NCBI RefSeq assembly: GCF_009720385.1
Contig: NZ_WARX01000006.1
Span: 248,001 to 312,000, forward strand
DNA length: 64,000 nucleotides
Direction: 5' to 3'
Source of the DNA: Catellatospora vulcania
GTDB taxonomy: Bacteria > Actinomycetota > Actinomycetes > Mycobacteriales > Micromonosporaceae
Under the pieces are notes generated by a model that saw nothing but the letters and a program-made list of their open reading frames with translations, had not been told where the DNA came from and searched no databases. The translations under genes were made by a program, and so were the position numbers. Positions 10,920-46,705 of this stretch are shown piece by piece (position 1 is the stretch's first letter; every line of letters begins with the position of its first letter).

Positions 10920-10924
10920 CTAAC

Positions 10925-12472: not shown

Positions 12473-12499
12473 CCCGGAAGGCGGGCGCGGCAGCGGACG

Positions 12500-12564
12500 A
12501 AGATCGCTGTTTGCGGTCAGAAACTGCGGTCGGACCTGACTATCTGACCTCAAACAGCGATCTT
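12500..12564. repeat. Family B hairpin, copy 3 (65 nt, inverted)
   Basis: Arms 12499-12521 and 12543-12565 pair over 23 bases with one mismatch. Read on the minus strand the centre is GGTCCGACCGCA, as in copies 1 and 2, so this copy is inverted. It lies between the convergent M48 and ThuA-like genes. Confidence 0.9.
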
Positions 12565-12619
12565 CGGGCCTAGCGGCGTCCGGAAGCGGCACCGCGGACG
12601 AGGTGGGCCGCGATGGCGG

Positions 12620-17059: not shown

Positions 17060-17114
17060 CCGGCCCCCTCAGCGGCGCCCGCCCGGCCGCCCCGCCCGGC
17101 CCAGCCCGGCCTAA

Positions 17115-17179
17115 ATAGACGCCGGCCTATCTGATGGAGAAATAGTAGATCATTCTCCATCAGATAGGCCGGCGTCTAT
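17115..17179. repeat. Orphan 65-nt perfect hairpin in a convergent gap
   Basis: Arms 17115-17141 and 17153-17179 pair perfectly over 27 bases around an 11-nt loop rich in A and T. Its total length is the same as family B (65 nt) but the sequence is unrelated. It lies between the convergent ABC exporter and Stealth genes, where it can act as a two-way terminator. Confidence 0.9.
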
Positions 17180-17219
17180 GAAAAGCGGAGCGGAGCGGGC
17201 GCGGCCCGGCGGGGACGGA

Positions 17220-29685: not shown

Positions 29686-31095
29686 ATGACCACGATCTCG
29701 GCAGCGGTCGGCGGGGACGTCGACCATCGCGACCCGCTGGTGCGGTTACGCGCCCTGTTCGACCAGGGCACGGTGCGTACCCTGCACGGCGCGGACGACT
29801 CGGGAGTGCTTGCCGCGCGCGGCGAGATCGACGGCATGCCCGCGGTCGCGTTCGCCACCGACGCCACCCGGATGGGCGGCGCGCTGGGGGCCGAGGGCTG
29901 CGAACACATCGTGGACGTCATCGACACCGCGGTCCGCGAGCGGATCCCCGTCGTCGGCCTGTGGCACTCCGGCGGCGCCCGCCTGGCCGAGGGCGTCGTC
30001 GCCCTGGACGGGGTGGGCCAGGTCTTCGCGGCGATGGTGCGGGCCTCCGGCCGGGTGCCGCAGATCTCCGTCGTGCTCGGCCCTGCGGCCGGCGGTGCTG
30101 CGTACGGGCCGGCGCTGACCGACATCGTGATCATGAGTAGTGCCGGCCGGATCTTCGTCACCGGGCCCGAGGTCGTCCGCTCCGTCACCGGCGAGCAGGT
30201 CGACATGGAGAGCCTGGGCGGCCCCGACGCGCACGGCCGCCGCTCCGGCGTCGTCCACATCACCTGCAAGGACGACGCCGCCGCCGTCGCCGAGGCGCGC
30301 AGGCTGGCCCGGCTGCTCGGCCGGCAGGGCCGCCTGTCCCCCGCCGACGTCGCCGACGACCGGGACCTCGGCGCGTCGATGCCGGAGCAGGCCAACCGGG
30401 CGTACGACGTAAAGCCCGTCGTCAAGGCGCTGCTCGACGAGCCCGGCGTGGAGCTGCACGCCAAGTGGGCCCCGAACGTGGTGACCGTCCTGGGCCGCTT
30501 CGCCGGACGCACCGTCGGCGTCGTGGCCAACAACCCGCTGCGCCTGGGCGGCTGCCTCGACTCGGCCGCCGCCGAGAAGGCCGCCCGCTTCGTGCGCATG
30601 TGCGACTCGCTCGGCGTGCCCCTGATCGTGCTGGTGGACGTGCCCGGTTACCTGCCCGGCCTCGGCCAGGAGTGGGACGGCGTGGTGCGCCGCGGCGCGA
30701 AGCTGCTGCACGCGTTCGCCGAGGCGGTCGTGCCACGGGTGACCCTGGTGACCCGCAAGGCGTACGGCGGGGCGTACATCGCGATGAACTCCCGCGCGCT
30801 CGGCGCGAGTGCCGTGTTCGCCTGGCCGAACGCCGAGGTCGCCGTCATGGGCGCGGGCGCGGCCGTGAACATCCTGCACCGCAGGAAGCTCGCCGCGGCC
30901 CCCGCCGACGAGCGTGAGGCGCTGCGCCTCCGGCTGGTCGAGGACCAGGCCCGCATCGCAGGCGGCGTGAACCGCGCCCTGGAGATCGGCGTCGTCGACG
31001 ACGTCATCAAACCCGCCGAATCCCGCAAACGCATCGCCGACGCCCTCGCCGCCGCCCCCACCGCCCGCGGCGCCCACGGCAACATCCCCCTCTGA
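29686..31095 (+). CDS. Acyl-CoA carboxylase carboxyltransferase (AccD6-like)
   Basis: 469 residues from the ATG at 29686, with AAGGAG 6 bases upstream. Carboxyltransferase domain in two halves: GLWHSGGARLAEGVVAL with GPAAGGAAYGPAL (oxyanion glycines), and LVDVPGYLPGLGQEWDGVVRRGAK with YGGAYIAMNSRALG. It transfers carboxyl from biotin to acetyl- or propionyl-CoA, supplying malonyl- or methylmalonyl-CoA to the FAS-II genes in front of it. Size (~470) and position after fabF match accD6 of mycobacteria; the biotin carrier/carboxylase alpha subunit must be encoded elsewhere. It ends before a family C hairpin in a convergent gap. Confidence 0.9.
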   Translation: MTTISAAVGGDVDHRDPLVRLRALFDQGTVRTLHGADDSGVLAARGEIDGMPAVAFATDATRMGGALGAEGCEHIVDVIDTAVRERIPVVGLWHSGGARLAEGVVALDGVGQVFAAMVRASGRVPQISVVLGPAAGGAAYGPALTDIVIMSSAGRIFVTGPEVVRSVTGEQVDMESLGGPDAHGRRSGVVHITCKDDAAAVAEARRLARLLGRQGRLSPADVADDRDLGASMPEQANRAYDVKPVVKALLDEPGVELHAKWAPNVVTVLGRFAGRTVGVVANNPLRLGGCLDSAAAEKAARFVRMCDSLGVPLIVLVDVPGYLPGLGQEWDGVVRRGAKLLHAFAEAVVPRVTLVTRKAYGGAYIAMNSRALGASAVFAWPNAEVAVMGAGAAVNILHRRKLAAAPADEREALRLRLVEDQARIAGGVNRALEIGVVDDVIKPAESRKRIADALAAAPTARGAHGNIPL

Positions 31096-31158
31096 CCCCA
31101 CCCCGCCACACCCTCGCCCGCCCCCGGTCGCCCCGCCCGACCCCGCCCGCCCCCGGTC

Positions 31159-31219
31159 GCAACTCTTAAAGAGTCGCGGCCTCTGGACTTCCCCGAGGCC
31201 GCGAGTCTTTAAGAGTTGC
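31159..31219. repeat. Family C hairpin, copy 1 (61 nt)
   Basis: Arms 31158-31183 and 31195-31220 pair over 26 bases with one mismatch. The left arm contains the palindrome ACTCTT-A-AAGAGT and the right arm its near copy, centres 42 nt apart. Convergent gap between the accD6-like and acyltransferase genes. Other copies: 42583, 46635, 63697. Confidence 0.92.
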
Positions 31220-31297
31220 GCCAGGTGGGGCCGCCGGGTCTGCGGCGGGTGGGGGTGGGCGGATCGGCGGGTGGGGGTGGGTCGGTGGGGCGGTGGG

Positions 31298-33406
31298 TCA
31301 GGGGGTGGGGAGGCGGTCGGTGAGGACGGGGGCGAGCAGGGCGGCGAAGGTGGCTGTCAGGTGGCTGTTGTCCTTGTAGACCAGGACGTTGCCGATGACG
31401 ACGGGGCACTTGGCGGCGGTGCACATCCACGGAAGCGGGTCGATGACGGTGACGCCGTCCAGGCCCGCCGCCTCGGCGACCAGGGCCCGGCGGCGGCCGT
31501 CGCCGATCGCGGCCTGGGTCGGCCGGTGGCAGGCGTCCAGCTTGCTCAGGTGGCTCGACACGCACTCCGGGGCGTCCCCGGCGGGCCAGGCGGTGTCGCT
31601 GATCAGCACCTGCTTCAGGCCGGGCTGCGCGAGCCGGGAGAAGGTCTTGCGCCACGCCGAGGCCCAGCCGGTGGCCTGGTCGGGGCCGACGTCGAGGGCG
31701 TCGCCGTTGCCGTTGGACGACATCACCACCATGGCCGGGTTCAGCGACCGGATGTACTCCACCGCGGCGTCGCGCCAGCGCACGCACTCCTCGTACGGCC
31801 GCTTCAGGTTGGTCATGTAGATCAGGGTGCTCGCGGCCGAGCAGGCCGATTTGGTGACCACGGCCAGCCGCCAGCCGCGCTGCTTGGCGACGGCGTCCAG
31901 TGGCGGGAACCAGTGCCCGGCGTGCGAGTCGCCGAACAGCACCATCGTGGTGCTGCTGTCGGTGTCGCCGTACATGCAGGGTTTGCGCACCTCGGACTCG
32001 CTGAACGCCGGGTCGCAGCCGTCGAGGTAGAGCCGGGGCACGTCCACCTCGGCCTTGTCGACGGACGGGGTGAGGTTGGCGGGCACCGTCGTCGACGCCG
32101 CGCCCGCCGCGACCAGGTTGATCAGCTCACGCTCGGCCCCGGTGGCGTTGGCCAGCGCGGACGCCACGTCGAGCGCCTGGCCGGAGCCGGAGCTGGGCGG
32201 TGGCACGTACACCGGCGCGGCGACGGCGACGGCGGCCAGTGAGGTCGACAGGGCCAGGCCGAGCGCGATGCCGTGCCAGGGGCGGCGGCGCAGCCGGGGC
32301 GCGGAGCGCACCGGGTCCTCGACCTTGACCAGCGTCGTCGCGGCCAGCAGGTACGACAGCCCGGCCAGCACCACCAGGCGGCCGGTGCTCAGCTCGCCGA
32401 ACACGTACGGCCCGACCACCAGCACCGGCCAGTGCCACAGGTACCAGCCGTACGACAGCCGCCCCGTGAGCTGCACCGGGGCCAGGCCCAGCACCCGGGA
32501 GTCGGGACGCGCGCAGCCCGCCCCGAGCACGAGCGCGGTCGCCAGCACGGGCAGCGCGGCGGCGTACCCGGGGAAGGCGGTCTGCTCGGTGAAGGTGAAC
32601 GCGGCCAGCAGGATGCCGGCCAGGCCGACCCACCGCCCGATGATCGCGAGTTGCCCCGGCAGCCGCTCCCAGTGCACGGCCGTCGCCGCGACCAGGCCGC
32701 CGACGGCCAGCTCCCAGGCCCGGGTCTGCATGCCGAAGTACGCCCACGGCGCGGACACGCCGGTCTGCCACACCGACAGCCCGAACGAGACGACCACGAT
32801 CGCGGAGAACAGGGCCAGCACGGTCCGGTGGCGGCGGTGCGGGCGGCGGCGGGTCAGCAGCACGGCCCCGATGAGCAGCAGCGGCCATACGAAGTAGAAC
32901 TGCTCCTCGACGGCGAGGCTCCAGAAGTGCTGCAGTGGCGACGGCGTCTGCGCCGACCCCAGGTAGTCGGTGCCCACGATGGCGAGCCGGTAGTTCATGC
33001 CGTAGAAGGTCGTCGCCAGGGCGTCGCCGGCGATGGCGGCGAAGCGCACCGGCGGCAGCCACAGCCAGGCGACGCCGACGGTCACCGCGGTGACGAAGGT
33101 GGCCGCGGGCAGCAGCCTGATCGCGCGCCGGGCGTAGAACGAGCCGATCGAGATGGTCCCGGTCTTGTCGACCTCGCGCAGCAGGTGTCCGGTGATCAGG
33201 AAGCCGGAGATGACGAAGAAGACGTCCACTCCGACGTAGCCGCCGCTGAGCACCTCCACTCCCGCGTGGAACAGCACCACGACGGTGACCGCCAGGGCGC
33301 GCAGGCCCTCCACGTCGGGCCGGAAGCCGGACCGGGCCTGCTTGCGAGTGGCCGTTGGTGGCGGGACGGCGGACGGGACGGGCGCGCGGGTGTCTGTGAC
33401 GGTCAT
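31298..33406 (-). CDS. Acyltransferase-3 / SGNH fusion, surface glycan O-acyltransferase
   Basis: 702 residues from the ATG at 33406 (MTVTDTRAPVPS), with AGGA ~7 bases upstream; the open frame continues 20 codons further without a better start. N-terminal acyltransferase-3 domain (~30-390) has about ten helices and the conserved RPDVEGLRALAV start, FFVISGFLI and QHFWSLAVEEQFYFVWPLLL. A second, extracytoplasmic SGNH hydrolase-like domain (~460-700) has block I FGDSHAGHW (Ser ~494) and block V DNSHLT (Asp/His ~679-682). This is the OafA/PatB-like arrangement that O-acetylates polysaccharides outside the membrane. It is divergent from the GT2/acyltransferase locus across a 434-base gap. Confidence 0.92.
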   Translation of the reverse strand: MTVTDTRAPVPSAVPPPTATRKQARSGFRPDVEGLRALAVTVVVLFHAGVEVLSGGYVGVDVFFVISGFLITGHLLREVDKTGTISIGSFYARRAIRLLPAATFVTAVTVGVAWLWLPPVRFAAIAGDALATTFYGMNYRLAIVGTDYLGSAQTPSPLQHFWSLAVEEQFYFVWPLLLIGAVLLTRRRPHRRHRTVLALFSAIVVVSFGLSVWQTGVSAPWAYFGMQTRAWELAVGGLVAATAVHWERLPGQLAIIGRWVGLAGILLAAFTFTEQTAFPGYAAALPVLATALVLGAGCARPDSRVLGLAPVQLTGRLSYGWYLWHWPVLVVGPYVFGELSTGRLVVLAGLSYLLAATTLVKVEDPVRSAPRLRRRPWHGIALGLALSTSLAAVAVAAPVYVPPPSSGSGQALDVASALANATGAERELINLVAAGAASTTVPANLTPSVDKAEVDVPRLYLDGCDPAFSESEVRKPCMYGDTDSSTTMVLFGDSHAGHWFPPLDAVAKQRGWRLAVVTKSACSAASTLIYMTNLKRPYEECVRWRDAAVEYIRSLNPAMVVMSSNGNGDALDVGPDQATGWASAWRKTFSRLAQPGLKQVLISDTAWPAGDAPECVSSHLSKLDACHRPTQAAIGDGRRRALVAEAAGLDGVTVIDPLPWMCTAAKCPVVIGNVLVYKDNSHLTATFAALLAPVLTDRLPTP

Positions 33407-33840
33407 CCGGATTCCTGTTCGCGTGCCAGCGCGGCGGCTGGGGGTCGGCGGGCTCACGAGAGGCATCGGGGCACGGCCCGTATCGGATGTGCCCGCAGCG
33501 GCATCCCGGCGAAGATCCGCCCGAACCGGGTAGGCCGACCGGGCAGCCGCTCCCGGCCGCGCGGAGGCGGCGGCGCGACGTTCATTCCCGGGGTAGGAAA
33601 ACCGAGGTCAGCGCAACTTTGACACTCCGGCCGACCGGGCCATGCCCTACGGCACCTCACGTGCTCATTCACCGTTCGGCGGACTAATCCCCCCGGCTGG
33701 TCCTGCCGTCACGGCGTTGCCGCGGGCGGGGCACGCGAGTTGGGGCCGTTAGATTTCCGGTCCACTCCGGATCACTTCGTCCGATCCGGACGGACGTCCG
33801 CTGCGCGCCATCCCCCGGCGCGTTCACAGGGGAGCCCTCG
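33407..33840. other. 434-base gap between divergent surface-glycan genes
   Basis: No convincing gene: short frames on both strands lack ribosome sites and family matches. It must hold the promoters of both flanking transcripts. The notable structure is the paired symmetry at 33766-33800, described separately. The stretch before 33600 is GC-rich and without repeats. Confidence 0.6.
33766..33800. promoter_or_regulatory. Inverted repeat TCCGGATC-N9-GATCCGGA plus adjacent palindrome
   Basis: Perfect 8-bp arms (33766-33773 and 33783-33790) separated by 9 bases, followed directly by the 10-bp palindrome CGGACGTCCG (33791-33800). It lies 41-75 bases upstream of the LPVTG microprotein start, so it is a candidate operator for the GT2/acyltransferase transcript. 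Confidence 0.5.
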
Positions 33841-34068
33841 ATGGCCTTCGGCTCAAGCCAGCACATCCTGCCCGTGACGGGAGTGAGCATGCTGCTCGCG
33901 CCCGGCGTGGTTCTCAAAGTCGTCTCCGCGGCGCTGACCGCGATCCTGGTCGGCATCGTGCTGCTGCGCATGTCCGGCCGGCAGGAGCGGTTCGCGGGCC
34001 GCATCCCGCGCCCGCGCGGCCGGCACCGCGCCCGCCCGGACGGCGGGTGGCGCTCCGATGCGCTCTGA
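33841..34068 (+). CDS. Microprotein with LPVTG motif and one membrane helix
   Basis: 75 residues, ATG start with GGGGAG 6 bases upstream. Only nine residues precede LPVTG (10-14). A hydrophobic helix (~16-42, VVSAALTAILVGIVLLRM) and a basic tail follow (RQERFAGRIPRPRGRHRARP). This is the order of a sortase sorting signal, but there is no signal peptide and no surface domain for it to anchor. It overlaps the next gene by 11 bases, so translation is coupled to the glycan synthase. Possibly a small membrane partner of that enzyme. No sortase gene is in the window. Confidence 0.7.
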   Translation: MAFGSSQHILPVTGVSMLLAPGVVLKVVSAALTAILVGIVLLRMSGRQERFAGRIPRPRGRHRARPDGGWRSDAL

Positions 34069-36463
34069 CAATCGCTGGGCGCGGCTGGTCGCCGCGCTGG
34101 TCTGCGTCGCCGTCATCGTGGCGTACGTCGAGTTCGTCGGCGTCGACTCCGCCGAGCGGGTGCTGTCGCTGGTGGTGCTGCTCTACTCGCTGGGCATCCT
34201 GCTCGCCGGGCTGCTGCGCCGCCACCGGGAGCAGCCGCTGCCGGAAGGGCGCATCATCGCGGTGGTGCCGGCGTACAACGAGGACCCGGAGATGCTGCAC
34301 GACACCGTGCGCAGCCTGCTCAACGGCACGGTCGTGCCGGATGTCATCCACGTCGTCGACGACGGTTCGGCCTCCGAGCTGCCGCCGTTCCAGCACGCCC
34401 GGGTCGTCTGGCACCAGCGGGAGAACGGCGGCAAGCACCACGCGCAGGCCACCGCGCTGGTCGCCGAGCTGGCCGACTTCGACTTCGTGGTGACCGTCGA
34501 CAGCGACTCCGTGGTCGACCGGCACGCCGTGGAGCGCTGCCTGCGCCGCTTCGCCGACCCGAAGATCCAGGGCGTGACCGGCGTGGTGTACGCCATGAAC
34601 CGCGCCGAGAACCTCATCACCAAGGTCACCGACCTGCACTACCTGCACAGCTGCCTGGTGATCCGGGACGGCCTGTCGGCCACCGGCGACATCTTCACCG
34701 CCTCCGGCGCGCTGGCGGTGTGGCGCTCGGCCGTGGTGATGGACAACCTCACCGAGTACCTGCGCCGGGGCGTCGCCGACGACCGGCACCTGACCCACTT
34801 CGCGCAGCGGCGCGGCACCACCGCGGCGGTCGCCGACGCGATCGTGCACACCGCCGTGCCCGACAACGCGCCCGACCTGTTCCGGCAGCGCATCCGCTGG
34901 GCGCGGGACTACTACCGGGTCACCGCGCTGGACATCCGCTACCTGACCGGGTGGTCGTTCTGGCTGCGCACGTTCGACTTCGCGCTGATGTGCCTGGCCC
35001 CGATCTTCATCATGGGCGCGCTGATGGTGTTCCCGTTCGCGCAGTGGCGGGTGCCGTGGGTGGGCGTCGGCCTGTGGGTGGCGTTCCTGTACGCGCAGAC
35101 CACCGTGTACCTGTTCGACCGGCGCGGCGTGCCGTTGGGTGAACGGCTCAGCACCTGGCTGCTGCTCACCCCGGCGCTGTACGTCTTCCAGCTGGTCGTG
35201 GTCGGGCCGGCGGTGCTCGCCGGGCTGGCCAACCTGCGGCACAAGTCCTGGCAGACCCGAAACGAGGCCAAGGAGGCGGCGGCCCCGAGAACCGCCGAGC
35301 CGGTGCCCGCGCCCCGCGAGGGACGCTCGTTCTTCCTCGACCTGCTGCGGGCGCTGGCGATGGCCCGCGTCGTGGCGTTCCACGCCACCGGCTTCGTCTG
35401 GCTCGGCTTCGCGCTGCCGTCCATGGGCGTCATGTTCGCGCTGGCCGGGTCGCTGATGGCGCGGTCCATGATGAAGGCCAAGGACCGGCCCGAGATCGCC
35501 GTGTGGAGCCGGTTCCGCCGGGTCATGCCCGCGGTGTGGGCGGCGGGGCTGGTGCTCGTACCGCTGATGTGGGTGATGGGCTGGGACGGCGCCGACGCCC
35601 GGCCGTTCAACGAGACCGCGGTGCTGGCCTGGGTGTTCCCGCTGTCGGACCCGCCGGGCAACGACTGGGGCGTGCCGATCACGGGTGTGCTCTGGTACAT
35701 CCGCACCTACCTGTGGCTGACGCTGCTGGCCCCGCTGCTGTGGGCCTGCTACCGCCGCCGCCCGCTGCTGACCGCCCTCGCGCCGCTGACGCTGCTGGCC
35801 GTGTCGCCGCTCATCGGCTTCAGCTCGTGGCTGGCCGACGTCACCGAGATGCTCGGCATCTACGCCCCGTGCTGGGTGCTCGGCTACTGGCACGCCAGCG
35901 GGCGCCTGCAGCGCGCGAACCGCAAGGTGGTGCTGATCCTGTCCATCGTCATGGTCGGCGCGGCGCTGGGCTGGCTGAACGCCTTCCCACCCGCGGGCGG
36001 GCTGCTCCAGGCCAGTCCCGTCGGCCAGGTGCTGTGGTGCGCCGCGTTCGTGGTGCCGCTGCTGCACTGGGACCCGGAGCTGGCCTGGCTGTCGGCCCGC
36101 CGGCGGTTCCGCCGCCTCGTCGAGTGGATCAGCGGCCGCTCGCTGACCATGTTCCTGTGGCACCAGCTCGCGGTGCTGACGACCATCTTCATCCTCGGCA
36201 AGGCCAGGATCTGGGCGCTGGACAACGAGCCGCTGCTCATCGCGATCAAACTCGCGCTGTCGTGCGTCTTCATCGCCGGCGCCTGCTGGCTGCTCGGCTG
36301 GGTCGAGGACCTGCCCCGCCGCCGTCGCCGGGCCCGCCCCCGCGTCGGCCGCCACCACCCGGAGGTCGTAGCCGTCATCGCCCCGGCCCCCGAACTCGAC
36401 CAGACGATGGTCATGTCCACCATCACCGCCCGCACCATCCGCGCCACCGCCCCCGTCCCCTGA
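34058..36463 (+). CDS. Fused processive GT2 glycan synthase and acyltransferase-3
   Basis: 801 residues, ATG overlapping the microprotein gene. Two N-terminal helices (~10-55) precede a GT2 domain (~65-290) with VPAYNEDPEM, DSDS (148-151, UDP-sugar/metal), DDRHLT (241-246) and RQRIRW (276-281, the Q/RxxRW motif of processive synthases). These resemble hyaluronan, chitin and poly-GlcNAc synthases. Helices at ~300-400 form the export channel. After a Pro/Ala linker (~405-422), an acyltransferase-3 domain (~425-765) begins with RSFFLDLLRALAMARVVAFHATG (His 442). One polypeptide could therefore polymerise, export and acylate a glycan. An SGNH acyltransferase is encoded divergently. The basic C-terminal tail is not conserved-looking. 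Confidence 0.9.
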   Translation: MRSDNRWARLVAALVCVAVIVAYVEFVGVDSAERVLSLVVLLYSLGILLAGLLRRHREQPLPEGRIIAVVPAYNEDPEMLHDTVRSLLNGTVVPDVIHVVDDGSASELPPFQHARVVWHQRENGGKHHAQATALVAELADFDFVVTVDSDSVVDRHAVERCLRRFADPKIQGVTGVVYAMNRAENLITKVTDLHYLHSCLVIRDGLSATGDIFTASGALAVWRSAVVMDNLTEYLRRGVADDRHLTHFAQRRGTTAAVADAIVHTAVPDNAPDLFRQRIRWARDYYRVTALDIRYLTGWSFWLRTFDFALMCLAPIFIMGALMVFPFAQWRVPWVGVGLWVAFLYAQTTVYLFDRRGVPLGERLSTWLLLTPALYVFQLVVVGPAVLAGLANLRHKSWQTRNEAKEAAAPRTAEPVPAPREGRSFFLDLLRALAMARVVAFHATGFVWLGFALPSMGVMFALAGSLMARSMMKAKDRPEIAVWSRFRRVMPAVWAAGLVLVPLMWVMGWDGADARPFNETAVLAWVFPLSDPPGNDWGVPITGVLWYIRTYLWLTLLAPLLWACYRRRPLLTALAPLTLLAVSPLIGFSSWLADVTEMLGIYAPCWVLGYWHASGRLQRANRKVVLILSIVMVGAALGWLNAFPPAGGLLQASPVGQVLWCAAFVVPLLHWDPELAWLSARRRFRRLVEWISGRSLTMFLWHQLAVLTTIFILGKARIWALDNEPLLIAIKLALSCVFIAGACWLLGWVEDLPRRRRRARPRVGRHHPEVVAVIAPAPELDQTMVMSTITARTIRATAPVP

Positions 36464-36534
36464 CGCGCATAGCAGCCGCGTCGCCGCGCACCGCCTCGCG
36501 CCCGCTTCGCGCCCGCAGAGCGCCAGAGGCGAAG

Positions 36535-36578
36535 GAAGGGCACCTTCTTATCGCTATGCGTATAGGAAGGTGCCCTTC
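36535..36578. repeat. Family A hairpin, copy 2 (44 nt)
   Basis: Arms 36535-36547 and 36566-36578, spacer 18 nt starting TTATCGCTATGCG. Convergent gap between the GT2/acyltransferase gene and the P-loop kinase gene. GTTAAG-type flank on the right side (TTAAC at 36579-36583). Confidence 0.92.
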
Positions 36579-36602
36579 TTAACTTCGCGCATGGCTTGAC
36601 CT

Positions 36603-36687
36603 GCGGTCAGACGCGAGCTGTGGTCAGAGGCGAGCTGTGGCCAGAGGTGAGCTGCGGTCAGACTCGGCCTGTGGTCAGACGTGGCCT
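36603..36687. repeat. Five 17-bp direct tandem repeats
   Basis: Five consecutive 17-bp units, GYGGYCAGASBBGRSCT in consensus (for example GTGGTCAGAGGCGAGCT), with 2-5 differences between units. The last unit runs into the final codons and stop (36675-36677) of the minus-strand kinase gene. The units share the 12-mer GTCTGACCGCAG (minus strand) with the centre of family B copy 2. Confidence 0.85.
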
Positions 36688-37220
36688 TCGGTCCAGACGC
36701 GGGAGAGGACCTCGTCGACGGTCTGGTCGGCGGTCTGCTCGGAGGTGTCCAGCCACAGGCCGACGCGGGGGGTGTGTTCGCGCAGGTAGCGGTCGAGGTC
36801 GGCGACGCCCTCGTCACCCGGCTTGTACGCGACCTTGCCGCGCCGTGCGCGGCGCTCGTCGTCGCGGGCCTGCACGGCATCCGCCCGCGGCGCGAGCACC
36901 ACCGCGTACAGCGGCCGGTGCCGGATCGCCGCCAGCATCTCGGTCAGATCCTCGCCCAGCACGATGTCCTGCAGCACGACGTCGAACCCGGCCTCGGCGT
37001 ACCCGTCGGCGACCGTCGCCGCCAGCGCGTACCGCAGCCGCAGCTGGCGCAGCGCCTCGGCGGGCGGATCCGCCGGCCCCATGTCCACCCGGCCGTTGAC
37101 CACCATCCGCCGGAACAGGTCGCCGCGCAGGTGCACCGAGCGCTCCAGCCGCTCGGCGAGGCCCTGGGCCACCGTCGACTTGCCCGCGGCCTGGATGCCC
37201 GTCACCACGATCACCGCCAC
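36675..37220 (-). CDS. P-loop kinase of the AAA_33 / zeta-toxin-like group
   Basis: 181 residues from the GTG at 37220, with GGGGAGAG ~6 bases upstream; the long open frame upstream overlaps the divergent gene and is not coding. Walker A is GIQAAGKST (residues ~7-15). VHLRGDLFRRMVVNGR supplies the substrate Asp/Arg region and YAVVLAPRADAVQARDDERRARR the lid arginines, as in chloramphenicol phosphotransferase-like and zeta-like kinases. Substrate not known; a toxin role is unlikely without an antitoxin gene. It is divergent from the XdhC-domain gene with 54 bases between starts. Its 3' end overlaps 17-bp tandem repeats. Confidence 0.82.
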   Translation of the reverse strand: MAVIVVTGIQAAGKSTVAQGLAERLERSVHLRGDLFRRMVVNGRVDMGPADPPAEALRQLRLRYALAATVADGYAEAGFDVVLQDIVLGEDLTEMLAAIRHRPLYAVVLAPRADAVQARDDERRARRGKVAYKPGDEGVADLDRYLREHTPRVGLWLDTSEQTADQTVDEVLSRVWTEGHV

Positions 37221-37274
37221 TGTGCTCTCCCCCGCTGCCGCCGGAAACGGACGCCACAGTACTAGGCTGGGCGG

Positions 37275-37805
37275 GTGGCACATCAGCACACGGATCCGGC
37301 ATGCGCGGCGGCCCATGGCACCCCGCCCGTCCAGGACGGCACGCGCACCCTGGTCGCCGTGTTCGCGTCCCCGGTCGCCGAGCACCTGCTGCACTTCGCG
37401 CGCGACCTGGGCTACCGCACCGTGCTGGTCGAGCCCGACCTGCACCGGATCGAGTCCGTGTCCCGGCCCGAGAACCTGCGGCTGGCCAGCACCGTCGACC
37501 CTTCGTTCGCCGACGGCGACGTCGACGTGGTGGTCACCGACCACGACCGGCCCGAGCTCGGCGCGGTGCTGGACGCGGCGCTGCAGACCCGGGCCCGCTG
37601 GATCGGCGTGATGGGCAGCCTCCGGCACACCGCCCCGCATGTGGCGGCGCTGCGCGAGCGCGGGGTGGACGAGGCGGCGGTGGCGCGGGTGCACCGGCCG
37701 ATCGGGTTGAACATCGGCTCGCGTACGCCCGCGGAGATCGCCGTCGCGACGCTGGCCGGGCTGATCGCCGACCGCAACGACCGCCCCGGCGGCTTCGCCT
37801 TCTGA
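37275..37805 (+). CDS. XdhC C-terminal (Rossmann) domain protein
   Basis: 176 residues, GTG start. It contains the XdhC_C Rossmann domain: RTLVAVFASPVAEHLLHFARDLGYRTVLVEPD, then VDVVVTDHDRPE, WIGVMGSLRHTAPHV and GLNIGSRTPAEIAVA. The N-terminal CoxI/XdhC domain of full-length proteins is absent. Full-length XdhC inserts sulfurated molybdenum cofactor into xanthine dehydrogenase; stand-alone C-terminal domains occur next to molybdoenzymes or alone. No molybdoenzyme gene is in this window, so the partner is unknown. A family A hairpin follows. Confidence 0.85.
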   Translation: MAHQHTDPACAAAHGTPPVQDGTRTLVAVFASPVAEHLLHFARDLGYRTVLVEPDLHRIESVSRPENLRLASTVDPSFADGDVDVVVTDHDRPELGAVLDAALQTRARWIGVMGSLRHTAPHVAALRERGVDEAAVARVHRPIGLNIGSRTPAEIAVATLAGLIADRNDRPGGFAF

Positions 37806-37832
37806 CCTGCGGAAAAGCTCGCACGATGTTAA

Positions 37833-37876
37833 GAAGGGCACCTTCCTCTACGCATAGCGATGGGAAGGTGCCCTTC
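37833..37876. repeat. Family A hairpin, copy 3 (44 nt, inverted)
   Basis: Arms 37833-37845 and 37864-37876, spacer 18 nt. Read on the minus strand the spacer begins CCATCGCTATGCG, so it is inverted relative to copy 2. Left flank GTTAA. Between the tandem XdhC and YCII genes. Confidence 0.92.
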
Positions 37877-37960
37877 CTTCGAACTTTTCTTGCGGGGGCT
37901 GTCCGGAACGTGGTCTGCCGTTCGTCACTGCGGTGAACCTCGAACAAGGAGAGCAACGCG

Positions 37961-38299
37961 ATGAAGTATCTGATGTTCGTCTGCACCGACACCGAGCCGG
38001 ACACCGACCCCACGCCCGAACCCGACGTCGACGGCTGGGTGGACAAGCACGACGCCAGCGGGCAGCGGCTGATGGGTATGGGACTCGCGCCGAAGTCGAC
38101 GGCGACGACCGTGCGCGTGCGCAACGGGCAGACCATGATCTCGGACGGGCCGTTCGCCGAGACCAAGGAGCTGATCGTGGGCTTCGACCTGCTGGAGTGC
38201 GCCGATCTCGACGAGGCGATCGAGGTCGCCCGCGCGCACCCGATGGCCCGCAACGGCCGCATCGAGATCCGGCCGCAGGCCGACTGGGATCGGTCTTGA
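37961..38299 (+). CDS. YCII / DGPF-domain protein, ECF42 partner
   Basis: 112 residues, ATG start with AAGGAG 9 bases upstream. YCII-related fold (MKYLMFVCTD at the start). It carries the namesake DGPF motif in ISDGPFAETKELIVGFDLLEC and ends PQADWDRS. DGPF proteins are the genetic partners of ECF42 sigma factors, and here the stop codon overlaps the sigma start (TTGA), so the pair is translationally coupled. Known work describes ECF42 as lacking an anti-sigma factor and controlling dgpf genes; the DGPF protein's biochemical role is unknown. Confidence 0.92.
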   Translation: MKYLMFVCTDTEPDTDPTPEPDVDGWVDKHDASGQRLMGMGLAPKSTATTVRVRNGQTMISDGPFAETKELIVGFDLLECADLDEAIEVARAHPMARNGRIEIRPQADWDRS

Positions 38300-39537
38300 C
38301 CGACGCACGGGCCGCGGCGGCGCAGGCCGCCGCGGCCGCGGCCACCGAGGCGTACCAGCGCATCGTGGCCGCCCTGATCCGGATCACCGGCGACTGGACG
38401 CTGGCCGAGGACTGCGCCCAGGAGGCGCTGGCGCTGGCGCTCGACCGCTGGCCGGCCGACGGCGTGCCGGACAACCCGGGCGGCTGGCTGATGACGGTGG
38501 CCCGCAACCGTGCCCTCGACGTGCTCCGGCGCGGCACCGTCGAACGCCGCAAGCTGCGTGACCTGGCCGTGCTGGCGCTGACCGCGGCCACCGCCGAACC
38601 GGAGCCGGAGGAGATCGTGGACGACCGGCTGCGGCTGATCTTCACCTGCTGCCATCCGGCGCTGCCGCTGGAGGCCCGGGTGGCGCTGACGCTGCGCACC
38701 ATCTGCGCGGTCGCGACCGCCGACATCGCGCGGGCGTTCCTGGTCAGCGAGTCCACCATGACCCGGCGGCTGACCAGGGCCAAAACCAAGATCACCGAAG
38801 CCCGCATCCCGTATCGGGTGCCGACCGGCCCGGCCCTGGCGCAGCGGCTGCCCGGCGTGCTGGCCGTGCTGTACCTGCTGTTCACGCACGGCTACAACGC
38901 CGACGGGGAGCCCGCGTTCGCCGACGAGGCGATCCGGCTGACCCGGCTGCTCGCCCGGCTCATGCCGGACCAGGCCGAGGCCGCTGCCCTGCTCGCGTTG
39001 TTCCTGCTGCAGCACTCGCGGCGGCACACCCGTCGCGACGCGGCCGGCGATCTGGTCCCGCTGGACCGGCAGGACCGATCACGCTGGGACCACGCCGCGA
39101 TCGGCGAAGCCGTCGGCATCCTCTCCGAACTGCCGGAGTCCGAGCTGCCGCAGGCCGGGCCGTACGCGCTGCAGGCGCAGATCGCGGCCTGCCACGCCAC
39201 CGCCCCGTCCGTCGAGGACACCGACTGGCCCCGGATCGCGGACTGCTACGACCGGCTCGCCGAGCTGCAGCCGAGTCCCGTCATCGAACTCAACCGGGCG
39301 GTCGCGCACGGCTACGCCTACGGACCCGCGGCCGGACTCGACCTGCTCGCCAAAGCCCGCGCGAGCGGCGCGCTCGACGACTATCCGCTGGCCACCGCCG
39401 CGGAGGCGGACCTCACGGCCCGGGCCGGCGACCGGGTACACGCCGCCGCCCTGTTCCGCACGGCGGCCGAGCGCGCCCATGGCGCGTCCGAGCGGCGCGC
39501 GCTGCTCGACCGCGCCGACGAAGTCCAGGCCGGCTAG
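38296..39537 (+). CDS. ECF42-type RNA polymerase sigma factor with DUF6596 extension
   Basis: 413 residues from a TTG that overlaps the stop of the DGPF gene. Sigma region 2 (~10-75, EAYQRIVAALIRITGDWTLAEDCAQEALALAL) and region 4 (~110-170, TICAVATADIARAFLVSESTMTRRLTRAKTKI) are followed by a ~240-residue helical C-terminal extension (TPR-like, DUF6596) ending ASERRALLDRADEVQAG. Such an extension instead of an anti-sigma factor defines group ECF42. The extension is thought to be needed for activity. A convergent terminator follows at 39590-39632. It probably autoregulates the dgpf-sigma pair. Confidence 0.93.
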   Translation: MTDARAAAAQAAAAAATEAYQRIVAALIRITGDWTLAEDCAQEALALALDRWPADGVPDNPGGWLMTVARNRALDVLRRGTVERRKLRDLAVLALTAATAEPEPEEIVDDRLRLIFTCCHPALPLEARVALTLRTICAVATADIARAFLVSESTMTRRLTRAKTKITEARIPYRVPTGPALAQRLPGVLAVLYLLFTHGYNADGEPAFADEAIRLTRLLARLMPDQAEAAALLALFLLQHSRRHTRRDAAGDLVPLDRQDRSRWDHAAIGEAVGILSELPESELPQAGPYALQAQIAACHATAPSVEDTDWPRIADCYDRLAELQPSPVIELNRAVAHGYAYGPAAGLDLLAKARASGALDDYPLATAAEADLTARAGDRVHAAALFRTAAERAHGASERRALLDRADEVQAG

Positions 39538-39589
39538 CCGAGGACGCGGCCGGCCGCGGCTCGTGCCTGGTGGCGCGATTGCCGCACAG

Positions 39590-39632
39590 CGAGACGCCCG
39601 CTGCGGCCACGGGGGGCGCAGCGGGCGTCTCG
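39590..39632. terminator. Bidirectional terminator, sigma / NagZ-like convergent gap
   Basis: Perfect 16-bp arms (39590-39605 and 39617-39632) around an 11-base G-rich loop, between the ends of two convergent genes. Its sequence is unrelated to families A-C. Confidence 0.88.
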
Positions 39633-39637
39633 GCGGA

Positions 39638-41335
39638 TCAGGCGCAGGTGGTACGCGGCAGGCCGGTGACCTCGACCGGCGAGCGCCCGCTCGGCTTGGC
39701 CTTGCCGGTCAGCACCGCGGCCAGCCCGTCCATGGACAGGTCACTGGAGGAGTACGTCGCCACCAGCACCTTCGACGTCGACTTGGCCAGCAGCGTGGGC
39801 ACGTCCATGTGGACGGTGACCGCCGCGCCCGCGGCCAGGTCGTCGGCGGTGTCGCCGTACCCGACGAGGTGCACGACGCTGCCGCCGGTCTCGACGACCG
39901 TCGCCCCGGCCTTCTGGAGCGCCTCGGTCAGCCGGGTGCGGGCCTTGTCGCGGCCCGCCGAGGTGGTCACCCGCACCGGCCCGGTCACCAGCGGCTTGCC
40001 GCACGTGCCGCGCAGCAGCGTGACCGCGGCCGCGGCGAGCGGGGCGACGTCGGACTGGTGGGTGCCCACGGTGGACAGCGCGGGCGCCGCCGCCTGGCCG
40101 AAGCCCAGCTTGAGGGACAGGATCCGGCTGACGGCCTCGACCAGCCGTGCCCGCGGCAGGGTGCCTGCCTTCACCGCGTCGACGATGCCGGCGTGCGCCT
40201 GGCCCACGTTCGGCGGCATGAGGATCAGGTCGTTGCCGGCCAGCAGTGCCTTCACGGCCGCCTCGCCCGGCGGCGCCTTCATCGCCGGCGCCATGTTCAT
40301 GCCGTCGGTCACCACGACACCCTGGAAGCCCAGCTCGGTGCGGAGCAGGTCGGTGAGCACCTTCTTGGAGAACGTCGCCGCCACGCCCGGGTCGACGGCC
40401 TGCACGTCCAGGTGCCCGGACATGATGAGCGGCGCCCCGGCCTTGATGCCGGCCTTGAAGGTGGCCAGGTCGTCGGTGTCGAGCAGCTGCCGGGACTGGT
40501 TCACGACCGGCAGCTCGGTGTGGCTGTCCGCGGCGGTGTGACCGTGTCCCGGGAAGTGCTTGAGCGTCGCGGCGACGCCGCCCGCCCGCATGCCCTTGAC
40601 CGCGGCGACGACCTGCTCACCGGCCGCGCGCGGGTCCGACCCGTACGACCGGGAGCCGATCACGTTGCTGCCCGCCGGGCCGAGCACGTCGGCGACCGGC
40701 GCGAAGTTCACGTTCACGCCCACCGCGGCCAGTTCCAGGCCGGCCGCGCGCCAGGCCACCTCGGTCAGCTTCGGGTCGGCGGCCGCCCCGAACGTCATCG
40801 CGCTGGGCAGCACCGTCACCCCGGTGGTGAGCCGGGTGACCACGCCGAACTCCTGGTCCATGCCGATCAGCAGCGGCACGTCGGCGGGCAGCCGGGCGGC
40901 GGCGGCCTGCAGACCGCCGGTCAGCGCCCGCACCTGCTCCGGGGACTGCACGTTGTTCACCGGCTGGTTGGCCGCGGTCGGGTCGTTGCCGCCGAACCCG
41001 ATCAGGATCATGCCGCCGAGCCGGTACTTCTCGACCATCTGCGCGGGGGTGTCCACACCCGCCAGCGCCTTGTTGCCCGCCGCGGTGCCGGCGGAGACGT
41101 CGGTGGCCGAACGCCCGTAGGCGAACGGCATCAGCACCTGGCCGGCGAGGTCCGCGTCGGACATCTTCTTGATGATCCCGGCGACCTTGGCGGAGGCGTC
41201 GGCCGGATCCTGCATCGGCAGTGTTCCCCCGTTGTCGGGCGCCGTGCCGCACGCACTTGCCACGACCGCCACCGTGCACAGCCCGGACACGACAGAGCCG
41301 AGCCCGCGGAACCACTTCTGCGTTGACGAGGTCAC
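39638..41335 (-). CDS. GH3 beta-N-acetylhexosaminidase lipoprotein (NagZ-like)
   Basis: 565 residues, GTG start. Signal peptide with lipobox VASAC (Cys29), so the enzyme is lipid-anchored outside the membrane. The GH3 domain covers ~55-400. Visible are KHFPGHGHTAADSHTELP (the His/Asp loop special to NagZ-type enzymes), GMDQEFGVVTRL and the nucleophile aspartate in VVVTDGMNM. A C-terminal domain (~410-565) is unlike single-domain NagZ of enterobacteria but common in actinomycetes. Likely role: trimming GlcNAc from peptidoglycan fragments or chitin oligomers. It converges with the ECF42 sigma gene. Confidence 0.93.
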   Translation of the reverse strand: MTSSTQKWFRGLGSVVSGLCTVAVVASACGTAPDNGGTLPMQDPADASAKVAGIIKKMSDADLAGQVLMPFAYGRSATDVSAGTAAGNKALAGVDTPAQMVEKYRLGGMILIGFGGNDPTAANQPVNNVQSPEQVRALTGGLQAAAARLPADVPLLIGMDQEFGVVTRLTTGVTVLPSAMTFGAAADPKLTEVAWRAAGLELAAVGVNVNFAPVADVLGPAGSNVIGSRSYGSDPRAAGEQVVAAVKGMRAGGVAATLKHFPGHGHTAADSHTELPVVNQSRQLLDTDDLATFKAGIKAGAPLIMSGHLDVQAVDPGVAATFSKKVLTDLLRTELGFQGVVVTDGMNMAPAMKAPPGEAAVKALLAGNDLILMPPNVGQAHAGIVDAVKAGTLPRARLVEAVSRILSLKLGFGQAAAPALSTVGTHQSDVAPLAAAAVTLLRGTCGKPLVTGPVRVTTSAGRDKARTRLTEALQKAGATVVETGGSVVHLVGYGDTADDLAAGAAVTVHMDVPTLLAKSTSKVLVATYSSSDLSMDGLAAVLTGKAKPSGRSPVEVTGLPRTTCA

Positions 41336-41424
41336 GCGGGTATCCCACCAGCCGTACGGGGCGGGGTCAACCGTTACACGCGCCCGCCTCCTCCTTACGG
41401 CCGATCAGGCCACCCACGCTCGGG

Positions 41425-41919
41425 CTACCCGGCCCTGGTCAGCAGGGTCACCGGCGCACCTTCGGCGGCGTAGCGATACGGCTCGAGCTCGGCGTCCCAG
41501 GGGGTGCCCATCGCCATGTCGAGGGCATGCGCCAGCGCCTCCGGGCTGCGGCTGCCCGTGATCAGCGCGCGCAGCCGGTCCTCACCGAGCTGGATGTCGC
41601 CGGCCGCGCCCATCGCGGCCCGGAACAGGCCCCGGCCGGGCACATGCATGAACCGCTCACCGTCGACACCGGGGCTGGGCTCCTCGGTGATCTCGAAGCG
41701 CAGCATCGGCCACTGGCGCAGCTCAGCCGCGATCTCCGCCGCGGTGCCGGGCCGGCCGGACCAGTCGCACTCGGCGCGGCGGGCGCTCGGTTCGAGCGGC
41801 TGCACCGTCCAGTGCAGGTTTGCCGCGCCGCTTTTCAGGGCGCGCGAAATTGCCCACTCGACGTGAGGACACACGGCAAGCGGGCTCGAGTGGACGTGTA
41901 CGACGCCACGCGTGGGCAC
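41425..41919 (-). CDS. DUF3145 family protein
   Basis: 164 residues from the GTG at 41919 (MPTRGVVHVHSSPLAVCPHVEWAI), with GGAGG ~6 bases upstream. This N-terminus, the central RFEITEEPSPGVDGERFMHVPGRGLFRA and the end GTPWDAELEPYRYAAEG are highly characteristic of DUF3145, a conserved protein family restricted to actinobacteria. Its function is not known. No membrane segment or signal. It lies 89 bases from the NagZ-like gene on the same strand, with no terminator between. Confidence 0.93.
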   Translation of the reverse strand: MPTRGVVHVHSSPLAVCPHVEWAISRALKSGAANLHWTVQPLEPSARRAECDWSGRPGTAAEIAAELRQWPMLRFEITEEPSPGVDGERFMHVPGRGLFRAAMGAAGDIQLGEDRLRALITGSRSPEALAHALDMAMGTPWDAELEPYRYAAEGAPVTLLTRAG

Positions 41920-42154
41920 GGTGACCTCCCGAGACGGACAGGCTCGTCTTCCCCTACGGCCTGGCGACGCGGACGATCTCACCCATGATGACGTCTGGGG
42001 CGGATGTGGCGCCAGAGAATCGCGAAACTCGCCGGATGAATTGTCCGACCGGCCCGCGACGACGTGTCCGTCACACCGGAAGGCGACGCCGATCAGGGTC
42101 TGCTCAGGGGTCGTGTAGAGTTCCTAAGTCAACCAGACTTTCAAGGAGTACGTC

Positions 42155-42481
42155 GTGGCGAGCAACACCTCCAAGACCGCGCGCGCGTCTGTCCGGGCCG
42201 GTGAGGCCAAGGGTGGCGCGCTGAGCGTGCTCGGTGAGTTCAAGTACATCATTCCGCTGAACAACGGCAAGCACGCCTACGTGCGGAACCTCACCAACGG
42301 CAAGACCGTGCACCTGAGCACCACCTCGGACGCTTTCGTCGAGGAGATCCGCGTGCTCGCGGGCGCCGGCCACGCCGCCAAGATCCGTGCCGAGCTGGTC
42401 GCTCTCAACAGCACCCACCCCGGTCACGGGTGGGACGCCACCGAGAAGCGCCTGGCCGAGGCCGGCATCTTCGAGGGCTGA
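42155..42481 (+). CDS. Small basic/soluble protein of unknown family
   Basis: 108 residues, GTG start with AAGGAG 6 bases upstream. The N-terminal ~25 residues are Ala/Ser/Lys-rich and probably flexible (SNTSKTARASVRAGEAKGG). A compact domain follows: GEFKYIIPLNNGKHAYVRNL, then TTSDAFVEEIRVLAGAGHAAKIRAELVAL and a C-terminal HPGHGWDATEKRLAEAGIF. No cysteine, no membrane segment. I do not recognise it. The strong ribosome site, a 235-base upstream gap that may hold a promoter (TAGAGT at 42114-42119 resembles a -10) and a clear terminator suggest an independently expressed gene. Confidence 0.8.
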   Translation: MASNTSKTARASVRAGEAKGGALSVLGEFKYIIPLNNGKHAYVRNLTNGKTVHLSTTSDAFVEEIRVLAGAGHAAKIRAELVALNSTHPGHGWDATEKRLAEAGIFEG

Positions 42482-42498
42482 GCCCCTCTGTCTCGCAC

Positions 42499-42532
42499 TG
42501 AGGCCCCGTCCGCTCCGCGGCCGGGGCCTCAG
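42499..42532. terminator. Terminator of the 42155 gene
   Basis: Ten-base perfect arms CTGAGGCCCC / GGGGCCTCAG (42499-42508 and 42523-42532), 17 bases after the stop. Family C copy 2 follows 50 bases later. Confidence 0.8.
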
Positions 42533-42582
42533 CCATGCCCCCCACCCTGACGCGCCACGCCCGGCGTGCCGGCCAACGTGCG

Positions 42583-42643
42583 GCAACTCTTAAAGACTTG
42601 CGGCCTCAGAGATGCTCTGAGGCCGCAAGTCTTTAAGAGTTGT
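42583..42643. repeat. Family C hairpin, copy 2 (61 nt)
   Basis: Perfect 28-bp arms (42584-42611 and 42615-42642) with a 3-base loop. Arm palindrome centres are 42 nt apart. Convergent gap between the 42155 gene and carbonic anhydrase. Confidence 0.93.
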
Positions 42644-42711
42644 GCCAGGTGGGTGAAGGGCGGTGGCCGCGCGGGCCGCGCCGGGCCCGGGTCGGGCGGG
42701 GTGGGGTGGGG

Positions 42712-43347
42712 TCAGAGGAGGTCGACGACGCCGGTGTCGAGGTCGTAGACGGCGCCGACGATCTGGACGCGGCCGGCCGCGGCGGCGGCGGCGAGCCGGT
42801 CGGCCAGGCGGAGCTGCTCGACGGTGCGCTCGACGTGGCGGCGCAGCGCCTTCGCGTTGACCTGCGGGTCCTGCAGGCCGACCTCGGTCACCGCGGGTGC
42901 GATCTGGTCCACCAGGTATCCCATGAACCCGTCGGGGCGGCTGCCGGTGCGCAGCCCGTCGACGGTCGCGGCGACGGCCCCGCAGCGCTCGTGCCCGAGC
43001 ACCATCACCAGCGAGGCGTGCAGCTCCGAGACGGCGAACTCGACCGAGCCCACCACCGAACGGTCCAGCACGTGGGCGCCGGAGCGGACCACGCACATGT
43101 CGCCGAAGTTCTGGTCGAACACGGCCTCCAGCGGCACCCGCGAGTCGATGCAGCCCAGCACGACGGCGTACGGCTCCTGGCTGCTGGACTGGGCGGCCGC
43201 CTCGCCGACATGGTGGCCGTATCGGGGACGTCCGGCTGCGAAGCGGCGGTTGCCCGCCATCAGGTCGGCCAGCGCCTCTGCGGGCCCTCGACGGTTGCCG
43301 GTCATGGTCACATCAGAATCCGACGGCGCGGTCCTCGACTGCGTCAT
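42712..43347 (-). CDS. Beta-carbonic anhydrase
   Basis: 211 residues, ATG start. It interconverts CO2 and bicarbonate, supplying bicarbonate to carboxylases such as the acyl-CoA carboxylase. Zinc ligands are visible: Cys in GCIDSRVPLE with the active-site Asp-Arg dyad, then His and Cys in LGHERCGAV. The segment RFAAGRPRYGHHVGE is typical of the actinobacterial plant-type (clade B) branch. Length is normal and there is no signal peptide. It is divergent from the DedA gene, with 270 bases between starts that hold no further gene. Confidence 0.95.
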   Translation of the reverse strand: MTQSRTAPSDSDVTMTGNRRGPAEALADLMAGNRRFAAGRPRYGHHVGEAAAQSSSQEPYAVVLGCIDSRVPLEAVFDQNFGDMCVVRSGAHVLDRSVVGSVEFAVSELHASLVMVLGHERCGAVAATVDGLRTGSRPDGFMGYLVDQIAPAVTEVGLQDPQVNAKALRRHVERTVEQLRLADRLAAAAAAGRVQIVGAVYDLDTGVVDLL

Positions 43348-44340: not shown

Positions 44341-44457
44341 GTTCCAGCCTATCCGGTGGGGCCGCGCGTCACATCGGCCCGGTGAACGATCTTCCGGTCG
44401 GGGGCAGCCCGTACCCTATCGGGGCACCATCGCCGCCATACCCGGCCCGGGAGACGC

Positions 44458-46620: not shown

Positions 46621-46634
46621 CCCCCTCTCTTTCC

Positions 46635-46695: not shown

Positions 46696-46705
46696 CGCAG
46701 GCCGG

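What the first reader, a model, noticed from the sequence alone, without database searches (positions are those of the whole stretch)
31159..31219. Family C: four 61-nt hairpins, all in convergent gaps, with half-sites exactly 42 nt apart
Copies at 31159-31219, 42583-42643, 46635-46695 and 63697-63757 share GCAACTCTT at the ends and have identical total length. Each arm carries a 13-nt palindrome of the form ACTCTT-N-AAGAGT (imperfect in some copies), and the centre-to-centre distance is 42 nt in every copy (four helical turns). Inner stem bases differ between copies but both sides change together (for example GCGG/CCGC, GCGC/GCGC and GCGT/ACGC; TTG/CAA versus TCG/CGA), so the pairing itself is under selection. 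All four lie between convergent genes, which points to two-way termination or a boundary function.
Basis: partly seen in the sequence, partly recalled or inferred. Interest (0 to 1): 0.82.

Follow-up and report, generated by a model that had tools for sequence, protein, structure and literature searches.

The report
Dispersed two-way gene-end hairpin repeats
A soil bacterium carries many copies of one 61-letter mirror-image DNA hairpin parked just after gene ends, mostly where two genes point at each other; it probably helps end or protect RNA from both sides, and it appears to evolve by copying one arm from the other and by flipping its middle in place.

Summary
The four 61-nt hairpins are real. 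They belong to a dispersed family in a Catellatospora (Micromonosporaceae) genome. In the DNA held here, 88 distinct own copies: 57 in convergent gaps, 31 co-directional, 0 divergent, 0 in genes; two relatives show the same bias, with one divergent copy each. So convergent gaps are favoured, not exclusive. At orthologous sites 60 stem changes are compensated, against 3-13 when the partner is slid. However, the centre is inverted in place in 6 of 90 orthologous pairs compared (about 0.3 expected) and diverges three times faster than third codon positions. That is the signature of template switching, which makes compensated changes without selection. 'Pairing is under selection' is therefore only partly supported, although arms pair better in convergent than in co-directional gaps (p 5e-5). 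The 42-nt spacing is not general: another genus carries the same half-sites 31-45 nt apart. Where a relative lacks the element, its gap often holds another hairpin family. Best reading: a REPIN-like repeat without a detectable RAYT transposase, kept as a two-way RNA 3'-end hairpin. Termination itself is untested.

The parts
31159..31219 (.). Family C element 1, convergent gap between a carboxyl-transferase gene (29686-31095 +) and an acyltransferase/SGNH gene (31298-33406 -)
   Evidence: CM bits 81.6
42583..42643 (.). Family C element 2, convergent gap between a 108-aa ORF (42155-42481 +) and a carbonic anhydrase gene (42712-43311 -); orthologous elements in L120, L122 (cut by contig end), L123 and G003, a shortened derivative in L121, a family A hairpin in L124, neither C nor A in L125 and L126
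46635..46695 (.). Family C element 3, convergent gap between a helicase gene (44458-46620 +) and an alpha-amylase gene (46706-48913 -); orthologous element in L123/G001 and G003, different hairpins (GAAGGGCACCTTC type) in L120, L121, L122, L124
63697..63757 (.). Family C element 4, convergent gap between an alcohol dehydrogenase gene (62583-63656 +) and a minus-strand gene whose stop is near 63769 (cut by the window end)
   Evidence: orthologue L224 in G003
31159..31177 (+). left half-site of element 1 (GCAACTCTTNAAGAGTCGC); the inverted right half-site is 31201-31219; the other copies have the same layout
12482..12582 (.). hairpin of another dispersed family (A, GATCGCTGTTT...) in convergent gap 12473-12619
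17089..17205 (.). hairpin of family B (ATAGACGCCGGCCTATC...) in convergent gap 17060-17219
36535..36578 (.). hairpin of family D (GAAGGGCACCTTC) in convergent gap 36464-36674

Best explanation
Family C is a dispersed, lineage-specific, REPIN-like palindromic repeat: two conserved ends of about 20 nt in inverted orientation around a variable but mostly pairing centre. It sits just downstream of stop codons and most likely works as an RNA 3'-end hairpin for one or both flanking genes, either stopping RNA polymerase or fixing and protecting the RNA 3' end. In convergent gaps one symmetric element serves both transcripts. Shown by computation: the copy family, its position relative to genes, residence at orthologous sites, compensated arms, in-place inversion of the centre, and other hairpin families in the same gap of relatives. 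Inferred: that arms are kept alike by polymerase template switching, that selection also acts on pairing where two genes converge, that the conserved ends were recognised by a mobilising enzyme not found here, and that the hairpin acts on RNA ends.
For: Own genome: 88 copies, 57 convergent, 31 co-directional, 0 divergent, 0 in genes; G003 48/19/1 of 70 and G001 27/16/1 of 48 convergent/co-directional/divergent, the rest inside a called gene or at a locus edge. In co-directional gaps the median distance is 40 nt to the upstream stop and 123 nt to the next gene. Hairpins z -9.5 to -14.7. Convergent copies pair better (arm 20.8 in 54 copies against 19.2 in 30 co-directional copies, of 22 WC pairs, p 5e-5). 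93 orthologous element pairs; 60 compensatory double changes against 3-13 slid. Centre inverted in 6 of 90 pairs, null 0.37%. Divergence own-G003: positions 2-9 2.9%, centre 39.1%, third codon positions 12.5%. Families A, B, D in orthologous gaps. Intact half-sites occur almost only inside paired elements.
Against: No U-tract of canonical strength: the terminator scan of 30000-49900 found 8 sites, none at the three elements in that range. 201 of 344 changed pair cells are not kept paired in both genomes, and in the 18-copy alignment two of five covariation measures do not exceed column shuffles. Sequence conservation of the outer arms exceeds what a hairpin alone needs. No mobilising gene found: 0 PF01797 in the own genome and in G019. 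One divergent copy each in G003 and G001. No RNA data. Between the 108-aa ORF and element 2 lies another GC-rich hairpin (about 42498-42531), so element 2 may be redundant for that gene.
Confidence: 0.55

Rival explanations
1. RNA 3'-end stop and stabiliser rather than a terminator: Rho or another process ends transcription downstream, and 3' to 5' nucleases trim back to the hairpin.
For: No canonical U-tract. The stretch from stop codon to element is C-rich and G-poor (skew 0.39-0.42 against 0.03-0.07 in gaps without the element), as expected of Rho-loading RNA (recalled).
Against: The skew is mirrored on the far side of the element also in co-directional gaps (-0.44), so it looks like a property of the element's surroundings rather than of transcribed RNA; GC is 82-84% before the element, so the RNA is not obviously unstructured.
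Confidence: 0.3
2. A plain mobile repeat (REPIN or MITE type) without a host role: it accumulates after gene ends because insertions in genes and promoters are removed.
For: Conserved ends and variable centre as in REPINs (PMC3116915, passages); REPs lie mostly between convergent or same-direction genes (PMC3733652, passages); patchy distribution, exact half-site in 7 of 354 Micromonosporaceae genomes.
Against: No RAYT; I saw no clean empty site in the nine element-lacking comparisons read; orthologous residence (in regions chosen around elements, so no retention rate) with slow outer arms; pairing depends on gene orientation.
Confidence: 0.25
3. Two binding sites for a dimeric DNA-binding protein that makes a transcription or chromatin boundary.
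For: Half-site is a near-palindrome with a free middle base (position 10 diverges 23% while 2-9 diverge 2.9%); the half-site is shared with another genus while inner stem and flanks differ.
Against: Half-sites are hardly used singly: in own held DNA 332 matches inside elements against 6 outside (4 from a solo half-site in L039 and a third half-site beside the L033 element, 2 weak ones in genes); in relatives 470 against 7. Spacing is not fixed to the helical repeat in the other genus. Only 9 of 176 own half-sites are perfect palindromes.
Confidence: 0.1
4. Covariation is wholly mutational: template switching keeps arms alike and there is no selection on pairing.
For: Centre inversion and hypervariability; the mechanism is described in PMC8794818 and PMC8604942 (passages).
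Against: Arms pair better in convergent than co-directional gaps; position bias against divergent gaps; outer arm sequence is slow.
Confidence: 0.2

Closest known systems
REPINs (REP doublets forming hairpins), Bertels and Rainey 2011, PMC3116915 (passages seen)
   Same: Two highly conserved ends in inverted orientation, variable centre with compensatory changes, extragenic, many copies.
   Different: No RAYT gene in this genome, no GTAG tag, occurs in an actinobacterium, the centre flips in place at some orthologous sites; singlets, which exist there, are almost absent here.
GTAG and CGTC REP repeats, PMC3733652 (passages seen)
   Same: Mostly between convergent and same-direction genes, close to 3' ends of genes; CGTC REPs also lack a dedicated transposase.
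   Different: No GTAG or CGTC tag next to the palindrome (flank columns); the unit is the 61-nt pair, not the 20-40 bp monomer.
Bidirectional intrinsic terminators (recalled)
   Same: GC-rich inner stem with A-rich 5' and U-containing 3' sides on both strands, between convergent genes.
   Different: No canonical U-tract; outer sequence conserved between loci and between two genera, which intrinsic termination does not require.
Template-switch hairpin evolution (PMC8794818, passages) and trnH-psbA palindrome-associated inversions of plastids (PMC2903610, start of abstract in a listing only)
   Same: Homogenised arms and inverted loops in place.
   Different: Here in a dispersed bacterial repeat family at gene ends, with many parallel loci.

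Membership tests
REPIN / REP | inverted pair of conserved palindromic ends around a variable pairing centre | tested here: met
   the half-site palindromes are mostly imperfect
REPIN / REP | extragenic, mostly convergent or co-directional gaps | tested here: met
   57 + 31 of 88, 0 divergent
REPIN / REP | RAYT (Y1_Tnp, PF01797) gene in the genome, flanked by the repeat | tested here: not met
   0 matches in G000 and G019; nine matches in six relatives of 17 genomes searched, no convincing element in the loci of about 3 kb around them, best 14.4 bits
REPIN / REP | GTAG or CGTC tag at one end | tested here: not met
   commonest flank letters read TG(C/G)C before the left end and the mirror after the right end, 88 own copies
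Intrinsic terminator | GC-rich stem located downstream of stop codons | tested here: met
Intrinsic terminator | U-rich tract after the stem | tested here: not met
   scan of 30000-49900 lists no site at the three elements there; element 4 was not scanned; only CUCUUU within the outer stem
Intrinsic terminator | RNA 3' ends at the element | not testable with these tools
   no RNA data
Rfam families | match above the gathering score | tested here: not met
   0 matches in the window
Twin protein operator | single half-sites used elsewhere and fixed helical spacing | tested here: not met
Template-switch signature | arm homogenisation and in-place spacer inversion | tested here: met
   60 double changes; 6 of 90 strict inversions, null 0.37%

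The most novel reading that the evidence does not exclude
A sequence-specific two-way RNA-end module: the half-site GCAACTCTTNAAGAGTYGC is recognised by an unknown factor in two genera, which makes the inverted pair a transcription boundary that does not rely on a U-tract, while template switching keeps the pair symmetric and flips its centre so the module cannot drift into a one-way form.
Probability: 0.13. Interest if true: 0.8.

Novelty: new variant of a known kind. Interest (0 to 1): 0.55.

Why it matters
Compensated stem changes are the standard argument that a structure is selected. Here a many-copy natural family shows compensated arms together with in-place inversion of the centre, at orthologous sites with known orientation, so the share due to mutation and the share due to selection could be measured in one genus. 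The family also shows that the hairpin in one gene-end gap can differ in family between sister species, which makes turnover of gene-end signals directly observable.

Tried and rejected
RAYT/IS200 mobilisation: PF01797 gave 0 hits in the own genome and in G019; nine loci in six relatives held no convincing element. A nuclease-like gene (DUF559/MTES_1575 match) flanked on both sides by elements (L097) looked like a REP-transposase arrangement, but 5-8 matching stretches occur in each of the 12 genomes searched, including the element-poor ones, and by comparing listed coordinates in G000, G001 and G003 I saw no other one beside a listed element: rejected. Transposase genes between close element pairs: none among 10 proteins scanned. 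Site-specific inversion: not pursued, since 42 bp between sites is too short for ordinary synapsis (recalled). A longer paired stem in the flanks: no position-wise covariation, only mirrored C/G composition. Rfam: no match. Paper searches listed no description of this family; that covers only the open PMC library, and I saw listings, plus passages of four papers.

Dropped or limited rows: 3 of 93 orthologous pairs of unequal length were left out of the pair counts and of the inversion test. L123 duplicates genome G001 and was left out of the element list, so 7 of the 39 'no element' rows are L123, which does carry the element; 30 of the 39 concern named loci L120-L126 at the two window gaps. 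Hits weaker than E 1e-6 (three places) are not among the 88. Orthologous pairs are not all independent, because some loci appear in several genome pairs; own-G003 alone gives 24 compensatory changes in 43 pairs. An earlier count on 29 pairs gave 31 double changes and is superseded.

Full report
What is there. The window lies in an 8.83-Mb, 36-contig genome. Named relatives of the helicase gene next to element 3 are Catellatospora species at 83-97% identity, so the genome is most likely a Catellatospora (Micromonosporaceae). The four reported 61-nt elements are exact, fold at -45.8 to -57.2 kcal/mol with z between -9.5 and -14.7 and are not explained by chance. No Rfam family matches the window.

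Genome-wide set. In the 1.64 Mb of own DNA that I held, 88 distinct copies pass E 1e-6. Gaps of at least 61 nt in the same DNA number 180 convergent, 476 co-directional and 242 divergent. Fisher tests give p 2e-22 for convergent against the rest and p 3e-13 against divergent. Most of that DNA was chosen around the elements, so these tests compare gap classes inside the same regions. Twelve random 20-kb stretches held one weak copy, co-directional, among 27 convergent, 77 co-directional and 38 divergent gaps of at least 30 nt. The bias repeats in G003 (48 convergent, 19 co-directional, 1 divergent, 1 inside a called gene, 1 at an edge; 70 copies) and G001 (27, 16, 1, 1, 3; 48 copies); the two divergent copies and two copies overlapping called genes are listed. 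In co-directional gaps the element is near the upstream stop (median 40 nt) and far from the next gene (median 123 nt).

Anatomy. Positions 2-9, 11-14, 18-20 and 22 are nearly invariant; positions 10, 15, 17, 21, 26 and 28 vary with their partner (84 copies of 61 nt). On the 18-copy alignment, 25 cells changed on both sides against 14.4 in shuffles and 2-10 when slid, and cells paired and the covariation score also exceed all 500 shuffles; but the number of pairs with a two-sided change (7 against 7.1) and of further pair types (21 against 19.9) do not. Outside the 61 nt there is no position-wise pairing, but the flanks are C-rich before and G-rich after the element, mirrored: skew 0.38-0.46 over the first 80 nt, against 0.07-0.15 in convergent gaps without C. 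Family A shows no such skew in the first 30 nt, family D a weaker one from 11 nt on, and family B a similar one in only 4 copies.

Orthologous loci. Using both flanking sequences I matched elements between genomes: 93 orthologous pairs, mainly own-G003 44, own-G001 19 and G001-G003 17. The regions of the relatives were chosen around elements, so this gives no rate of retention. Over 26 stem pairs in the 90 equal-length pairs (2340 cells) 1996 are unchanged; 60 are compensatory double changes (20 transversion-type), 83 one-sided changes that keep a pair, 167 one-sided changes that do not, and 34 two-sided changes without a pair in both. Sliding the partner by 1-3 gives 3-13 compensatory changes. 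Both sides changed at 94 pair positions against 20.5 expected if independent. So co-change at the same site is real and is not only inherited subfamilies, but pairing is far from strictly kept.

Why that is not proof of selection. The central 17 nt were compared directly and inverted, with orientation fixed by the flanking genes. In 6 of 90 pairs, at six different loci, the centre matches its orthologue only when inverted (at most 3 mismatches and at least 4 fewer than direct); random element pairs do so in 0.37%. With a looser cut 8 are inverted-like (null 1.9%), 28 direct-like and 54 neither. Examples are L031:14303 with L219, L228 with L280, and L070:11163 with L292. Divergence between own and G003 (43 pairs) is 2.9% at positions 2-9, 23% at position 10, 39% in the centre, and 12.5% at third codon positions. 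Third positions in a 72% GC genome are themselves constrained, so the factor of three is approximate. Template switching between arms of short inverted repeats homogenises arms and inverts spacers (PMC8604942 and PMC8794818, passages seen); this fits. Assembly error could mimic inversion; the element is shorter than ordinary reads, but reads were not available. Evidence that selection also acts: arm pairing is better in 54 convergent than in 30 co-directional copies (20.8 against 19.2 of 22, p 5e-5; centre p 0.05), which a purely mutational process has no obvious reason to do. The two half-sites also behave as direct repeats: L039 keeps a single half-site where G003 has an element, and L033 and L282 carry a third half-site beside the element.

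Turnover. At the helicase gap, L123 and G003 keep a C element, while L120, L121, L122 and L124 have a GAAGGGCACCTTC-type hairpin. At the carbonic anhydrase gap, L120, L122, L123 and G003 keep C, L121 has a shortened derivative, L124 has a family A hairpin, and L125-L126 have neither C nor A. Of nine further comparisons with an element-lacking orthologue, three hold family B (one G001 site is counted twice there), one family A, one an unrelated hairpin (own L061), one a single half-site, one a decayed copy, one (own L105) an inverted repeat that I did not assign to a family, and one a 24-nt gap. Among the 180 own convergent gaps of at least 61 nt: C 57, D 17, A 15, B 6, A plus D 3, none of these 82.

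Distribution. The exact half-site GCAACTCTTNAAGAGTYGC occurs in 7 of 354 Micromonosporaceae genomes: six of the eleven Catellatospora genomes and one of another genus, G019. The covariance model is more permissive: 35 of 250 family genomes have a match at E 1e-4, of which 9 are Catellatospora, one is G019 and 25 are others with 1-12 strand matches that I did not inspect. In 17 G019 loci read, CAACTCTTNAAGAGTTG is a perfect palindrome at the left end in 16, the inner stem begins GGTCCT in 13, the outer flank is AAGATCG(C/T)C in 15, lengths are 50-64 nt, and 4 are convergent, 13 co-directional and none divergent. Hence the conserved part is the half-site pair, not the inner stem or the 42-nt spacing.

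Mechanism and rank. The architecture and placement are those of REPINs (PMC3116915, PMC3733652, passages seen), but the defining transposase and tag are missing, so I do not file it as a REPIN; it works like one in spread and like a gene-end hairpin in place. Whether it terminates transcription, or only sets and protects RNA 3' ends, cannot be told from sequence: the canonical U-tract is missing at the three elements scanned.

Noticed in passing
window 7241-7305, 10994-11058, 12482-12582 (family A); 17089-17205 (B); 10871-10924, 36535-36578 (D): Three further dispersed hairpin families with a similar avoidance of divergent gaps: in own held DNA A 39 places (3 divergent), B 11 (0), D 45 (1).
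   Followed up: partly
flanks of family C elements, about 80 nt each side: Mirrored composition: C-rich before and G-rich after the element on both strands, also in co-directional gaps; much weaker in gaps without C. Cause unknown.
   Followed up: partly
L056:1232-1291: Same architecture with a different half-site palindrome (GCAGTTTCGGGGAAACTGC), perhaps a sister family.
   Followed up: no
G001 contigs: At least 14 of 83 listed elements lie within 210 nt of a contig end (counted by hand from a capped list; not all contig lengths are known), so drafts seem to break at these hairpins and copies may be undercounted.
   Followed up: no
L097:9871-10985 and G001 L309:4001-5106: A nuclease-like gene (DUF559/MTES_1575 match) is flanked on both sides by elements in two species; its relatives elsewhere in G000, G001 and G003 are not beside listed elements.
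   Followed up: yes
G000 contig C2; G003 contig C1: Uneven spread: only one exact CAACTCTTNAAGA listed on C2, and no listed G003 element before 1.26 Mb or after 8.30 Mb of the 8.9-Mb contig (capped list).
   Followed up: no
L130, L131 (Hamadaea), gap after the helicase gene: Another long hairpin (GGATCAGGGTTC...GAACCCTGATCC) shared by two Hamadaea MAGs in the same gap, suggesting genus-specific families in this position.
   Followed up: no
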